From positions 1 through 64,000 of the forward strand of contig CAJKKQ010000008.1 in the NCBI GenBank assembly GCA_905200545.1: 64,000 nt of DNA. The letters run 5' to 3'. This stretch comes from an uncultured Oscillibacter sp. Lineage in GTDB: Bacteria; Bacillota; Clostridia; Oscillospirales; Oscillospiraceae. Shown here one piece after another: positions 9,845 to 15,930 of the stretch. Both the position numbers and the translations under genes were made by a program. The notes beneath the pieces were generated by a model. That model saw nothing but the letters and a program-made list of their open reading frames with translations, ran no database searches and was not told the DNA's origin. Position 1 is the stretch's first letter. Every line of letters begins with the position of its first letter.

Positions 9845-9991
9845 TCCCATTTTCCGCGAATCCGGTTTTCCCCCACCTCCCAGATCCATTTTCGTCAACT
9901 TTTCATCTTCTGGGCCCTGTTTTTGTGGAAGTTAACAGTTTATTAATTTTTTTCCTCTGTGATTCTGTGTCTTTTTACCCATTCTTTCCGA

Positions 9992-10020
9992 TTGACTTTG
10001 CTGCTTTCACCCGTTAAAAT
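9992..10020 (+). promoter_or_regulatory. Sigma-A promoter of the liv leader region
   Basis: TTGACT (9992-9997), a 17-base spacer and TAAAAT (10015-10020). The bases between 9845 and 9990 are AT-rich and hold no gene I can support. Confidence 0.7.
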
Positions 10021-10086
10021 AAAACACAACTTCCAGATGCGGAGCCCGCTCCGGGGAAGTGAATTTTCCAAAAGGAGGACACTGTG

Positions 10087-10371
10087 ATGACCCGTTCTGC
10101 CATGTATGCCATGTCTCATATGTCTCACAGTGCGTCTGCCTATCAGGCAGAGGCCTCCTGCTCCTGCGCGCATCACGCCGCTTACAATGGGATCAGCCTG
10201 ATTCTGGACGCCATTATTATGGCGTCCATTATTATTTGCGTCCTGATTTGCGGCATCGGCATTTTGGCCCTGGCCATTACCCTGCTGGTACTGGTATTGG
10301 TATTGGGACTGCTGGTACGTAATCGTTTTGATTTTCATACGCCTGAAATGCGAAGACGCGCGCTGCTGTAA
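10087..10371 (+). CDS. Ile/Leu/Val-rich 94-residue leader peptide or small membrane protein
   Basis: ATG 10087 has AAGGAGG (10072-10078) eight bases upstream; an adjacent GTG at 10084 is less well placed. Residues 1-35 are rich in Ala, Ser, His, Met and Cys (ASCSCAHH). In residues 36-77, 28 of 42 are Ile, Leu or Val, including LLVLVLVLGLLV; residues 78-94 are basic. A rho-independent terminator follows 13 bases after the stop, then the branched-chain amino-acid importer operon. This layout resembles the leader peptides that control ilv operons by attenuation. The alternative is a single-span membrane protein of unknown role. The frame is longer than classical leaders, which is unusual. Confidence 0.65.
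   Translation: MTRSAMYAMSHMSHSASAYQAEASCSCAHHAAYNGISLILDAIIMASIIICVLICGIGILALAITLLVLVLVLGLLVRNRFDFHTPEMRRRALL
10305..10313 (+). promoter_or_regulatory. Candidate antiterminator segment
   Basis: GGGACTGCT lies inside the Gly-Leu-Leu codons at the end of the Ile/Leu/Val run. It can pair over nine bases (one G-U) with AGCGGTCCC at 10387-10395, the left arm of the downstream terminator. Pairing would prevent terminator formation. Confidence 0.4.
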
Positions 10372-10384
10372 TCTTTGATACAGT

Positions 10385-10419
10385 AAAGCGGTCCCGCTGA
10401 AAGGCGGGGCCGCTTTTTT
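10385..10419 (+). terminator. Rho-independent terminator or attenuator before livK
   Basis: AAAGCGGTCCCGC (10385-10397) pairs with GCGGGGCCGCTTT (10404-10416) around TGAAAG, with six T residues at the end. It separates the Ile/Leu/Val-rich frame from livK. A TATAAT at 10421-10426 abuts it, but without a recognisable -35 box at the right spacing, so livK may depend on read-through. Confidence 0.85.
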
Positions 10420-10449
10420 GTATAATCTTTCCCAAAAGGAGAATCCAAG

Positions 10450-11628
10450 ATGAAGAAGAAGTTTTTTGCACTCATGATGGCCATGACCATGGTCCTCTCC
10501 CTGGCTGCCTGCGGCGGAGAGACTGCCGAGACCACCAATGACGACACCACCTCCGAGGACACTGCCTCCGGCACCGCTTTCAAGATCGGTACCATCGGCC
10601 CCCTCACCGGTGACGCTGCCATCTACGGCCAGGCCGTCGCCAACGGCGCCGCCATCGCCGTGGAGGAAATCAACGCCGCCGGCGGCGACATCCAGTTCGA
10701 GCTCAAGAGCGAGGACGATGTCAACGACGGTGAGACCTCCGTCAACGCCTACAACACCCTGATGGACTGGGGCATGCAGCTGCTGGTTGGCCCCACCACC
10801 ACCGGCCCCTCCGTTTCCGTGGCTGCCAAGTGCTATGAGGACCGGACCTTCATGCTGACGCCCTCCGCCTCCTCCACCGATGTCACCTCCGGTAAGGACA
10901 ATGTCTTCCAGGTCTGCTTCACCGACCCCAACCAGGGCACCAGCTCCGCAGACTACATGGCCGAGAATATGGCCGACGCTAAGATCTATATCCTCTATCA
11001 GAACGACGACGCTTATTCTCAGGGCATCCGGGACGCTTTTGTCTCTGAGGCCGAGGCCAAGGGCCTGACCATTGTGGATGAGGGCACCTTCACCAAGGAC
11101 ACCGCCACCGACTTCTCCGTGCAGCTGACCGCCGCTCAGGCCGCCGGTGCCGACACGTTGTTCCTGCCCATGTACTATCAGCCCGCTTCCGTCATCCTCA
11201 ACCAGGCCAACGCCATGGGCTATGCCCCCACCTTCTTCGGCGTGGACGGCATGGACGGCATCCTCACCATGGAGGGCTTTGACGCCTCTCTGGCCGAGGG
11301 CGTCATGCTGCTGACCCCCTTCTCCGCCACTCTGGAGGAAAACCAGTCCTTCGTCCAGGCTTATCAGGATCAGTTCGGCGAGACCCCCAACCAGTTCGCC
11401 GCTGACGCTTATGACGCCGTGTACATCCTCAAGGAGGCCCTGGAGGCTGCCGGCTGCACCGCCGATATGTCCGCTGCCGACATCTGCGAGGCACTGGTCC
11501 CCACCATGACCACCCTCTCCCACGACGGTCTCACCGGCAAGGGCATGACCTGGTCTGCCGACGGCGCCGTGTCCAAGGATCCCACCGCCTTTGTCATCCA
11601 GGACGGCGTGTACGTTCTGCCCCAGTAA
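10450..11628 (+). CDS. livK: Branched-chain amino-acid ABC importer, substrate-binding lipoprotein
   Basis: A 392-residue LivJ/LivK-type binding protein. Lipoprotein signal MKKKFFALMMAMTMVLSLAACGG with Cys21 as the lipid site, then a Thr/Asp linker and a type-I periplasmic-binding fold (FKIGTIGPLTGDAAIYGQAVANGAAIAVEEINAAGG; AKIYILYQNDDAYSQGIRDAF). AAAAGGAG precedes the ATG. It heads the complete livKHMGF set. Leu/Ile/Val is the expected ligand of the family, and the leader upstream supports it, but related proteins bind other amino acids or amides. The message ends in a large stem-loop, consistent with the binding protein being made in excess of the membrane subunits. Confidence 0.9.
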   Translation: MKKKFFALMMAMTMVLSLAACGGETAETTNDDTTSEDTASGTAFKIGTIGPLTGDAAIYGQAVANGAAIAVEEINAAGGDIQFELKSEDDVNDGETSVNAYNTLMDWGMQLLVGPTTTGPSVSVAAKCYEDRTFMLTPSASSTDVTSGKDNVFQVCFTDPNQGTSSADYMAENMADAKIYILYQNDDAYSQGIRDAFVSEAEAKGLTIVDEGTFTKDTATDFSVQLTAAQAAGADTLFLPMYYQPASVILNQANAMGYAPTFFGVDGMDGILTMEGFDASLAEGVMLLTPFSATLEENQSFVQAYQDQFGETPNQFAADAYDAVYILKEALEAAGCTADMSAADICEALVPTMTTLSHDGLTGKGMTWSADGAVSKDPTAFVIQDGVYVLPQ

Positions 11629-11789: not shown

Positions 11790-12668
11790 ATGGAATTTCT
11801 CTCCTACCTGATCAGCGGCATCAGTCTGGGCAGTGTGTACGCCATCATCGCCCTGGGCTATACCATGGTTTACGGTATTGCGAAAATGCTGAACTTCGCC
11901 CACGGTGATATCATCATGGTGGGCGGCTACATTTCCTTTTGCGCCATGAACTACTTGGGGCTCCCCAGCATCGTATCCGTGCTGCTGGCCATGGTGGTAT
12001 GCACGGTGCTGGGTGTGGTCATTGAGGGTCTTGCTTACAAGCCCCTGCGTGCCGCTCCCTCCCTGGCCGTGCTGATCACCGCTATCGGCGTGAGCTACTT
12101 CCTGCAAAACGCAGCCCAGCTGATCTGGTCTGCCGCTCCCAAGGTCTACTCCCCCGTGGTAGCGGGCTCCCTTTCCCTGATGGGAGGACAGCTCTCCATC
12201 CCCTATGTCTCCATTTTGACGGTGGTCACCTGCCTGGTCATCATGGCTGCCCTCACCACCTTCACCAGCAAGAGCAAGATGGGCAAGGCCATGCGGGCCT
12301 GCTCCGAGGACCGCAGCGCCGCGCAGCTGATGGGCATCAACGTCAACGCCACCATCTCCATTACCTTTGCCATCGGCTCCGCGCTGGCGGCTATCGCCGG
12401 TGTGCTGCTGTGCTCCTCCTACGGCACCCTGATGCCCACCACCGGCTCCATGCCCGGCATCAAGGCCTTCACCGCTGCCGTCTTCGGCGGCATCGGCTCC
12501 ATCCCCGGCGCGTTCCTGGGCGGACTGCTGCTGGGCATTATCGAGTCCATGGCCAAGGCCTACATCTCCACCAACCTGGCCAACACCATCGTCTTTGCCG
12601 TGCTGATCGTGGTGCTGCTGGTGAAGCCGGCAGGCCTGCTGGGCAAGTATGTGCCTGAGAAAGTGTGA
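11790..12668 (+). CDS. livH: Branched-chain amino-acid ABC importer permease LivH
   Basis: A 292-residue permease of the BPD_transp_2 family with about eight hydrophobic segments. It shows the family N-terminus (FLSYLISGISLGSVYAIIALGYTMVYGIAKMLNFAHGDIIM) and the coupling segment MRACSEDRSAAQLMGINVN that contacts the ATPases. AAGAGGTG (11775-11782) lies seven bases before ATG. It pairs with LivM, encoded 10 bases downstream, to form the membrane channel. Confidence 0.95.
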   Translation: MEFLSYLISGISLGSVYAIIALGYTMVYGIAKMLNFAHGDIIMVGGYISFCAMNYLGLPSIVSVLLAMVVCTVLGVVIEGLAYKPLRAAPSLAVLITAIGVSYFLQNAAQLIWSAAPKVYSPVVAGSLSLMGGQLSIPYVSILTVVTCLVIMAALTTFTSKSKMGKAMRACSEDRSAAQLMGINVNATISITFAIGSALAAIAGVLLCSSYGTLMPTTGSMPGIKAFTAAVFGGIGSIPGAFLGGLLLGIIESMAKAYISTNLANTIVFAVLIVVLLVKPAGLLGKYVPEKV

Positions 12669-15357: not shown

Positions 15358-15386
15358 TTGCAGCGGAGGATCCGCTGTGGTATACT
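15358..15386 (+). promoter_or_regulatory. Promoter of niaR
   Basis: TTGCAG (15358-15363), 17 bases, then TATACT (15381-15386). The -10 box lies inside the niaR operator-like sequence, so NiaR binding should block its own promoter. Confidence 0.6.
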
Positions 15387-15399
15387 CCTGTCAAGACAG
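15376..15399. promoter_or_regulatory. NiaR operator-like site before niaR
   Basis: The left arm TGTGGTATACTCCTGTC matches the left arm of the perfect site at 15973 at 14 of 17 bases; AA and GACAG follow, so CTGTC-AA-GACAG is conserved but the outer right arm is not. A weaker version would give autoregulation. Confidence 0.6.
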
Positions 15400-15417
15400 A
15401 TTACGGGAGGCGGTATC

Positions 15418-15930
15418 ATGCGCGCAGAAGAGCGGCGGGCAAAAATTCTGGAGATTCTCCACGGGGCTGGCGGGCCCGTCAGCGCGGCCACCCTGGCGGG
15501 GCAGTTTTCCGTCAGCCGCCAGATCATCGTGGGAGACATCGCCCTGCTGCGGGCGTCGGGCGCCAACATCTCTGCCACGCCTCGGGGATATGTGATTCTG
15601 GGAGAGACCCCGGGACTTGTGCGGCGGGTGGCCTGCCAGCACGGCCCCGGCGGGATGGAGGCGGAACTCAACGCCGTGGTGGATCAGGGCTGCACGGTTT
15701 TGGACGTCATCGTGGAGCACCCGGTTTACGGACAGCTCACCGGGTCGCTGCAGCTGTCCAGCCGCTACGATGTGCAGCAGTTTCTCCACCGCTGCGCTGC
15801 CTCCGACGCCCAGCCCCTCTCTCTTTTGACGGAGGGCATCCACCTCCACACCCTCGCCTGTCCGGATCAGGCCGCCTTTGACCGGGTGCAGGCAGCTCTG
15901 CGGGAAATGGGCGTCCTCTTGGAGGGCTAA
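15418..15930 (+). CDS. niaR: Niacin-responsive transcriptional repressor (HTH_11 plus 3H domain)
   Basis: A 170-residue protein with an N-terminal winged HTH (RRAKILEILHGAGGPVSAATLAGQFSVSRQIIVGDIALLRASG) and a C-terminal 3H domain whose conserved metal/ligand His residues appear in CQHGPGG, VEHPVYGQL and GIHLHTL. NiaR (YrxA, TM1602) proteins bind nicotinic acid and repress NAD-precursor uptake or synthesis genes in Firmicutes and Thermotoga. GGGAGG lies seven bases before ATG 15418. Operator-like palindromes precede both this gene and the membrane-protein gene downstream, supporting the assignment. Confidence 0.9.
   Translation: MRAEERRAKILEILHGAGGPVSAATLAGQFSVSRQIIVGDIALLRASGANISATPRGYVILGETPGLVRRVACQHGPGGMEAELNAVVDQGCTVLDVIVEHPVYGQLTGSLQLSSRYDVQQFLHRCAASDAQPLSLLTEGIHLHTLACPDQAAFDRVQAALREMGVLLEG

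What the first reader, a model, noticed from the sequence alone, without database searches (positions are those of the whole stretch)
9992..10450. Candidate branched-chain amino-acid attenuator ahead of the liv importer
A promoter (9992-10020) leads into a 94-codon frame with a strong ribosome site in which 28 of residues 36-77 are Ile, Leu or Val, ending LLVLVLVLGLLV. A rho-independent terminator follows 13 bases after its stop, then livKHMGF. GGGACTGCT within the last Leu codons can pair over nine bases with the left arm of that terminator (AGCGGTCCC). If ribosomes stall on Ile/Leu/Val codons upstream, the pairing could form and let transcription into liv; efficient translation would cover it and allow termination. 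Leader-peptide control is well known for ilv biosynthesis operons. For a transport operon, with a leader this long, it would be unusual. The hydrophobic run could instead be a membrane segment.
Basis: partly seen in the sequence, partly recalled or inferred. Interest (0 to 1): 0.75.

Follow-up and report, generated by a model that had tools for sequence, protein, structure and literature searches.

The report
Leader-peptide attenuator for amino-acid import
A long leader peptide, first almost free of and then packed with isoleucine, leucine and valine codons, sits before the importer genes for these amino acids in a group of gut bacteria and probably works as a switch that lets the genes be read when these amino acids run short.

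Summary
In detail: promoter, strong ribosome site, 94-codon frame with 28 of residues 36-77 I/L/V, terminator 13 nt past the stop, then livKHMGF. (1) The 5' part is conserved and nearly excludes I/L/V (23 of 2176 residues; 25.8% in window proteins) but not Met or Phe; the block behind it is 66% I/L/V. (2) A terminator-like hairpin (10205-10228), found in all 71 with compensatory changes, lies at the first I/L/V codons. (4) Downstream genes: 59 livK-like, 8 LctP-like permeases (6 followed by a hydroxyacid-dehydrogenase-like gene), 1 isoleucine-2-epimerase homologue, 3 cut off. Related genomes carry T-boxes before BCAA synthesis and tRNA-ligase genes. No regulation was shown. Against: tail pairing is not more stable than synonymous shuffles; I/L/V are not preferentially exchanged with each other. 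New variant of a known kind.

The parts
9992..10020 (+). sigma-70-like promoter TTGACT-17-TAAAAT of the leader transcript
   Evidence: promoter-like site upstream of 69 of 71 leaders, 9.6 expected
10071..10078 (+). ribosome binding site of the leader peptide
   Evidence: sequence; strong site before 59 of 71 leaders
10087..10371 (+). leader peptide, 94 codons (GTG at 10084 possible)
   Evidence: homologues
10087..10191 (+). run-up, codons 1-35, no Ile, Leu or Val codon
   Evidence: sequence; family block before H2: 23 I/L/V of 2176 residues, 54 of 71 leaders with none
10192..10317 (+). control-codon region, codons 36-77, 28 I/L/V
   Evidence: sequence; family block after H2: 1318 I/L/V of 1998 residues
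10205..10228 (+). hairpin H2 (stem core GGACGCC/GGCGTCC) inside the frame, at the first I/L/V codons; proposed pause or early-termination hairpin
   Evidence: 99.5% of 612 cells paired, 13 double changes, 0 of 500 shuffles as high
10228..10237 (+). U-rich stretch after H2 (AUUAUUAUUU)
   Evidence: 6 or more U in the 9 nt after the stem core in 69 of 71
10350..10397 (+). proposed antiterminator hairpin: pairs 10350-10352/10395-10397, 10355-10357/10391-10393, 10359-10361/10388-10390, 10364-10370/10379-10385; spans the stop codon and uses most of the terminator's left arm
   Evidence: swap tests
10385..10416 (+). intrinsic terminator, followed by U-run
   Evidence: after 70 of 71 leaders (69 by score; L023 by eye)
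10450..11628 (+). livK-like substrate-binding lipoprotein
   Evidence: Pfam PF13458 E 3e-52; best NCBIfam hit a BCAA binding protein, 111.7 bits, below its cut-off of 477
11790..12668 (+). livH permease
   Evidence: PF02653
12649..13749 (+). livM permease
   Evidence: PF02653
13682..14590 (+). livG ATPase (open frame as listed; true start probably later)
   Evidence: PF00005 and PF12399
14473..15297 (+). livF ATPase (open frame as listed; true start probably later)
   Evidence: PF00005

Best explanation
It is a ribosome-mediated transcription attenuator that senses charged Ile, Leu and Val tRNA and controls BCAA import. RNA polymerase starts at 9992-10020 and a ribosome starts on the leader. 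The first 35 codons lack I/L/V, so the ribosome reaches hairpin H2 whatever the BCAA supply; H2 with its U-rich tail is a pause (or weak early terminator) that the ribosome melts, which couples the two machines. If BCAA are scarce, the ribosome then stalls among about 25 I/L/V codons; the stretch around the stop codon stays free and pairs with the left arm of the terminator (10350-10397), so the terminator cannot form and livKHMGF are transcribed. If BCAA are plentiful, the ribosome runs to the stop codon, covers that stretch, the terminator forms and transcription ends. Shown by sequence comparison: conserved parts, codon composition, H2 covariation, co-evolution of the hairpin strands at the stop codon. 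Inferred: stalling, pausing, the direction of control, and which amino acid counts most.
For: Unit kept upstream of a livK-like gene in 59 of 71 leaders (58 by motif, L046 by eye). Run-up 23 I/L/V of 2176 residues while Met is 10.1% and Phe 4.7%; block after H2 66% I/L/V with Phe 3.0% and Met 0.7%; 12 window proteins 25.8% I/L/V. LivH/LivM hydrophobic windows are 41.7% I/L/V. Leaders use GTA for 213 of 356 Val and ATT for 329 of 365 Ile after H2, against 6 of 118 and 22 of 120 in the window's liv genes. H2 covariation. First I/L/V codon (sought within the eight codons before H2 or later) starts 5-17 nt before the H2 stem in 68 of 71. Strand around stop codon vs terminator arm: native -11.36, swapped -9.49 kcal/mol, permutation p 5e-5 (n 36); p 0.012 (n 13); p 0.066 (n 5); a window 30 nt upstream p 0.42-0.57. 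Fraction of the terminator core's left arm paired with the stop region: 0.321 native vs 0.210 in synonymous shuffles, p 4.5e-5, n 69. The other target genes also fit BCAA: isoleucine-2-epimerase homologue, LctP-like permease with a dehydrogenase whose second-best solved relative is L-2-hydroxyisocaproate dehydrogenase.
Against: Overall stability of tail plus terminator arm is not above synonymous shuffles (mean z +0.18, p 0.12, n 69). On the 37-row alignment the antiterminator pairs are 88.2% formed, but covariation does not exceed sliding controls (score 0.085; +1 slide 0.092, +3 slide 0.150; 2 pairs with double changes against up to 5). With the strands split, tail x terminator core alone gives no co-evolution (p 0.73, 0.59, 0.37; the core is nearly invariant); the signal lies in the neighbouring parts: post-stop strand x the 10 nt before the core p 0.15, 0.0025, 0.0002, tail x those 10 nt p 0.034, 0.010, 0.12 for n 13, 36, 55. 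I/L/V are not exchanged preferentially among themselves (31 in class vs 34 to F/M/A, 29 of these Ala). The run-up is also poor in K, E, D, G, P. No expression data were available.
Confidence: 0.8

Rival explanations
1. The frame encodes a real small membrane protein that assists the Liv importer; the terminator only lowers expression of the genes behind it, and codon make-up reflects a membrane helix.
For: One hydrophobic stretch long enough for a helix, followed by an Arg/Lys-rich end; N-terminal motif conserved; I/L/V exchange with Ala about as often as with each other.
Against: I/L/V 66% with few Phe/Met, above Liv membrane windows at 41.7%; run-up excludes I/L/V but not Met/Phe; nearly the same first 50 residues occur with unrelated hydrophobic ends (P0020, P0022, possibly assembly artefacts); length 58-98 codons; also found before LctP-like permeases and an epimerase homologue, not only Liv.
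Confidence: 0.08
2. Attenuator with the opposite sign: full translation to the stop codon favours expression (the ribosome at the stop loosens the terminator base), so that the importer is induced when BCAA are available for fermentation.
For: Terminator core starts a median 15 nt after the stop, about where a terminating ribosome ends (footprint recalled); LctP and epimerase targets could be catabolic.
Against: The co-evolving hairpin at the stop codon pairs with the terminator arm and would be blocked by that ribosome, favouring termination; the ilv attenuators of S. aureus and Listeria work by read-through on starvation (PMC5794164, PMC5864092, passages read).
Confidence: 0.07
3. H2 is the main switch: untranslated RNA terminates or pauses at H2, and the element mainly reports translation (ribosome arrival) rather than BCAA supply.
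For: The same stem, mostly followed by TTT, recurs in the genus: 143 places (leaders included, self-complementary sites counted on both strands) in 63 of 86 genomes vs 12 for the reversed pattern (my sum, checked); H2 is the best-conserved part.
Against: U-tract is interrupted (AUUAUUAUU), so a full terminator is doubtful; does not explain the I/L/V block or the second terminator.
Confidence: 0.05

Closest known systems
ilv/leu leader-peptide attenuators of enterobacteria (E. coli ilvGMEDA, ilvBN, leuABCD)
   Same: BCAA-rich leader peptide, terminator before the structural genes; passages of PMC6123439 give a peptide with 15 BCAA, a 32-aa peptide with 11 BCAA (ilvBN) and a 28-aa peptide with 4 Leu (leuABCD)
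   Different: Here 58-98 codons, an I/L/V-poor run-up, a conserved in-frame hairpin ahead of the main control-codon block, antiterminator at the stop codon, and an uptake operon
Rli60 of Listeria monocytogenes (ilv-leu operon)
   Same: Ribosome-mediated BCAA attenuator in a Firmicute, 13-aa leader, antiterminator/terminator pair (PMC5864092, passages)
   Different: Controls biosynthesis; short leader; no such in-frame hairpin in the passages read
Leucine-rich attenuator peptide of the Staphylococcus aureus ilv-leu operon
   Same: Leu-rich leader and alternative hairpins (PMC5794164, passages)
   Different: Biosynthesis operon; its predicted antiterminator leaves the terminator stem intact and pairs with the U-tract
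ilvB-II and ilvB-OMG motifs
   Same: uORFs rich in BCAA codons, proposed attenuation (PMC10272879, passages)
   Different: Usually 15-17 aa in ilvB-II; biosynthesis genes; the window matches no Rfam family at gathering level
Attenuated transport genes in Firmicutes: candidate His attenuators and B. subtilis bmrCD
   Same: [quoted passage not shown] PMC4191407 (title and start of abstract only) reports one for a multidrug exporter
   Different: Histidine or drug signal; short His-codon runs; not a BCAA importer
T-box riboswitch (RF00230)
   Same: Also reads tRNA charging in Firmicutes; in five related genomes T-boxes precede ilvB, ilvC, leuA, leuS, ileS and valS genes
   Different: No T-box in this window; this element works through a translated peptide

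Membership tests
Ribosome-mediated amino-acid attenuator | Leader ORF with ribosome site downstream of its own promoter | tested here: met
   69 of 71 with promoter-like site, 59 of 71 with strong ribosome site
Ribosome-mediated amino-acid attenuator | Cluster of codons for the regulated amino acids | tested here: met
   1318 of 1998 residues I/L/V after H2, 23 of 2176 before
Ribosome-mediated amino-acid attenuator | Intrinsic terminator between leader and structural genes | tested here: met
   70 of 71; 97.5% of 518 cells paired on 37 of 69 rows
Ribosome-mediated amino-acid attenuator | Alternative antiterminator that shares the terminator arm and is masked by a ribosome at the leader's end | tested here: inconclusive
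   Positive: location test in 71. Negative: tail x core test in 71
Ribosome-mediated amino-acid attenuator | Pause hairpin that includes or abuts control codons | tested here: inconclusive
   hairpin and position met; pausing itself not testable here
Ribosome-mediated amino-acid attenuator | Regulated genes act on the sensed amino acid | tested here: met
   liv-type importer by family, isoleucine-epimerase homologue; LctP/dehydrogenase only probable; no substrate was measured
Ribosome-mediated amino-acid attenuator | Read-through rises on starvation for the amino acid | not testable with these tools
   needs RNA data
T-box riboswitch | Match to RF00230 | tested here: not met
   no Rfam match at gathering in the window; at E<=10 in 9950-10450 only three other families, all below gathering
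Conserved small membrane protein | Full-length sequence conservation with a membrane segment | tested here: not met
   ends vary in sequence and length; hydrophobicity itself is present
Conserved small membrane protein | Known family | tested here: not met
   no Pfam match

The most novel reading that the evidence does not exclude
A two-checkpoint attenuator regulon: H2, built on a stem that is common in the genus's hairpins, holds polymerase until a ribosome has crossed an I/L/V-free run-up, and the stop-codon hairpin then reads BCAA supply over about 25 codons. The same element steers the scavenging side of BCAA metabolism (import, branched-chain hydroxyacid uptake and oxidation, epimerisation), while T-boxes steer synthesis.
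Probability: 0.35. Interest if true: 0.68.

Novelty: new variant of a known kind. Interest (0 to 1): 0.55.

Why it matters
Leader-peptide control is textbook for amino-acid synthesis; here it would govern BCAA uptake, in a Firmicutes lineage whose relatives carry T-boxes before synthesis genes. The anatomy gives testable roles to each part: a run-up without control codons, a hairpin at the gate, a long codon array, and a switch at the stop codon. It also suggests what two poorly named operons do: an LctP-like permease plus dehydrogenase as branched-chain hydroxyacid salvage, and a BCAA-racemase operon. That bears on BCAA turnover by gut bacteria.

Tried and rejected
Pairing of the conserved AEAS codons with the terminator arm: seen in several leaders, not consistent, not pursued. 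A hairpin H1 in the Ala/Ser codons (10135-10151): longest stem 4.89 vs 4.69 in synonymous shuffles, p 0.19, not claimed. Synonymous shuffle of tail stability: no excess. Substitution-class test: does not favour I/L/V over other hydrophobics. Rfam at E<=10: Brucella BSnc120 on the other strand, Ref55 and UPD-PKc, all below gathering scores. A plain lactate reading of the LctP loci: set aside because the next gene lacks the QKPG loop of the two lactate dehydrogenases aligned and scores below the LDH cut-off (278 and 274 vs 303.6); but its best solved relative is a lactate dehydrogenase, and the two permeases tested score below the LctP cut-off (246 and 261 vs 341). Substrates are unproven.

Mended after checking: read livF in a wrong frame for the background counts; one search gives the right ones used here (25.8%, 6 of 118, 22 of 120). 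The hairpin test held artefact energies where no pair was possible; the capped values replace it.

How blocks were cut: before H2 = residue 2 to seven codons before the stem; after H2 = up to the last 12 residues. Rows dropped: hits L008, L027 and L080 (no leader anatomy), antisense hits in G608 and G790 (not fetched), and repeats of places already held (L030, L031, L033, L035, L045, L081, L082, L083). Terminator-based tests used 69 of 71 (L023, L044 fell below the score cut; L023 has a terminator by eye, L044 a hairpin without U-run near a contig end). Searches used 37 of these 69, the rest aligning poorly in the tail. The H2 finder looks for a 3' arm of a set form, so '71 of 71' is partly by construction; one search is the test. 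One search repeated the genus. My ORF picker hid genes behind antisense frames; one search looked again by motif and found the dehydrogenase in 6 of 8 LctP loci (9 records, L081 and L028 being one place and short; none in L088). Most LctP and livK calls beyond those scanned rest on sequence motifs or eye.

Print: eight searches listed no BCAA-import attenuator of this kind; lists are capped, most papers were seen as listings only, and the library lacks most subscription papers. Older work on attenuation and rho in E. coli leucine transport is recalled, not seen.

Full report
WHAT IS THERE. The window carries, in order, a promoter (9992-10020), a ribosome site (10071-10078), a frame of 94 codons (10087-10371), a terminator (core stem 10385-10416) and livKHMGF from 10450. 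The leader RNA is more structured than shuffles (z -6.0).

RELATIVES. The peptide has 56 database homologues at E<=1e-3. In whole genomes a profile matched 5 of 394 sampled genomes of the order, 22 of 400 sampled of the family and 50 of 86 of one genus (the order hit L008 and the family hit L027 are false). One database homologue is named Oscillibacter valericigenes, so the window is probably from an Oscillospiraceae gut bacterium; that is inference, as no genome is held for it. I worked with 71 distinct leaders, the window included. Downstream gene: livK-like in 59 (58 by motif, one by eye), LctP-like permease in 8, a class-III-aminotransferase-like protein in 1, cut off in 3. The last is closest to isoleucine 2-epimerase among solved structures (top three hits, E about 2e-93; a broad amino-acid racemase is fourth). 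In 6 of 8 LctP loci the next gene resembles L-lactate dehydrogenase. Two of these proteins miss the curated LDH cut-off; in both searches made the best solved relative is a lactate dehydrogenase and the second L-2-hydroxyisocaproate dehydrogenase; the LDH-type QKPG loop is replaced by GK-I-D/E-LL. I read this operon as probable branched-chain hydroxyacid salvage; this is inference.

CODONS. Across the 71 leaders the block before H2 has 23 I/L/V in 2176 residues and 54 of 71 have none, while Met (10.1%, start Met left out) and Phe (4.7%) are freely used; K, E, D, G and P are also low. The block after H2 is 66% I/L/V (L 29.9, I 18.3, V 17.8) with Phe 3.0% and Met 0.7%. Twelve window proteins average 25.8% I/L/V, Phe 3.1, Met 3.3; hydrophobic windows of LivH/LivM are 41.7% I/L/V. 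A membrane helix explains hydrophobicity but not the exclusion of only some hydrophobic residues from the run-up. Related leaders share ancestry, so these counts are not independent. Against this, in 22 close pairs I/L/V changed to each other 31 times and to F/M/A 34 times, mostly Ala; that test gives no support for class-specific selection.

H2. The stem GGACGCC/GGCGTCC is kept with changes on both sides (GGACACC/GGTGTCC, GGACGCT/AGCGTCC) and G-U forms: 99.5% of 612 cells pair, 13 cells have double changes, none of 500 shuffles reaches this, and sliding by one column drops pairing to 25-35%. Its loop varies from 5 to 14 nt in steps of codons, which argues for RNA rather than a DNA operator. 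It is followed by 6 or more U in 9 nt in 69 of 71. The first I/L/V codon near it starts 5-17 nt before the stem in 68 of 71, at 14 nt in 48 (sought within eight codons before H2). In the same genus this stem recurs outside leaders, mostly followed by TTT: 143 places in all, leaders included, in 63 of 86 genomes, 12 for the reversed pattern; their surroundings were not examined. I infer a pause or weak early terminator that a ribosome melts.

ANTITERMINATOR. Folding from H2 to the terminator's left arm, before the right arm exists, pairs that arm at a median of 8 nt before the leader's stop codon, with wide scatter. In the window this hairpin is 10350-10397, sixteen pairs, using most of the left arm. 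Different lineages build it from different bases, for example CTG/CAG, CCTG/CAGG, TCTGA/TCAGA (by eye). Synonymous shuffles lower the pairing of the core arm with the stop region from 0.321 to 0.210 (p 4.5e-5). Three results weigh against: no excess overall stability, no covariation beyond sliding controls on the 37-row alignment, and no signal for tail x core alone, where the core is almost invariant; the signal is in the parts beside the core. So a conserved hairpin at the stop codon is well supported, and its extension into the terminator core is probable, not proven.

MECHANISM. As stated in Best explanation. The terminator core begins a median 15 nt after the stop, about the reach of a terminating ribosome (footprint recalled), and control codons end a median 12 codons before the stop, so a ribosome stalled among them would leave the stop region free. 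Direction of control is inferred from this layout and from studied ilv attenuators (PMC5794164, PMC5864092; passages).

KNOWN OR NEW. The kind is known: BCAA leader-peptide attenuators for synthesis operons. The passages read in PMC6123439 describe them for biosynthesis and describe BCAA transporter genes of B. subtilis under CodY. Transport genes under attenuators have precedent elsewhere (his transporter candidates, PMC9413887; bmrCD, PMC4191407, listing). Five related genomes hold 16-20 T-box matches each; among the 30 of these whose next gene I looked at, ilvB, ilvC, leuA, leuS, ileS and valS occur, some as partial frames. A BCAA-importer attenuator with this long, zoned leader is therefore a new variant of a known kind, as far as the searches listed show.

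Noticed in passing
window 10205-10228 and genus-wide: The GGACGCC...GGCGTCC stem recurs across this genus, mostly as GGACGCC-loop-GGCGTCCTTT and often readable on both strands, like a common terminator stem; surroundings not examined.
   Followed up: partly
loci of leaders L071, L072, L074, L076, L078, L024 (wide loci L085, L086, L087, L089, L090): LctP-like permease followed by a dehydrogenase with a GKIDLL-type loop instead of the lactate-dehydrogenase QKPG loop: candidate branched-chain 2-hydroxyacid salvage operon.
   Followed up: partly
L084 4555-8161 (leader L079): Isoleucine-2-epimerase homologue, then a second PLP-enzyme-like gene and a transporter-like membrane protein (both by eye) behind the same kind of leader.
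   Followed up: partly
window 10421-10426: A TATAAT follows the terminator's U-run (TTTTTTGTATAAT), and TGTAT there can pair with ATACA before the stem; the two seem to change together in L017 and L019 (by eye).
   Followed up: no
P0020 and P0022: Peptides with nearly the window's first 50 residues joined to unrelated I/L/V-rich ends: recombination between leaders or assembly artefacts.
   Followed up: no
window 15358-15930: HTH_11 plus 3H-domain regulator (NiaR type by recall) directly after livF.
   Followed up: no
L122-L151: T-box loci in five related genomes (16-20 matches each); some stand before asparagine-synthase-like and ABC-transporter-like genes (by eye).
   Followed up: partly
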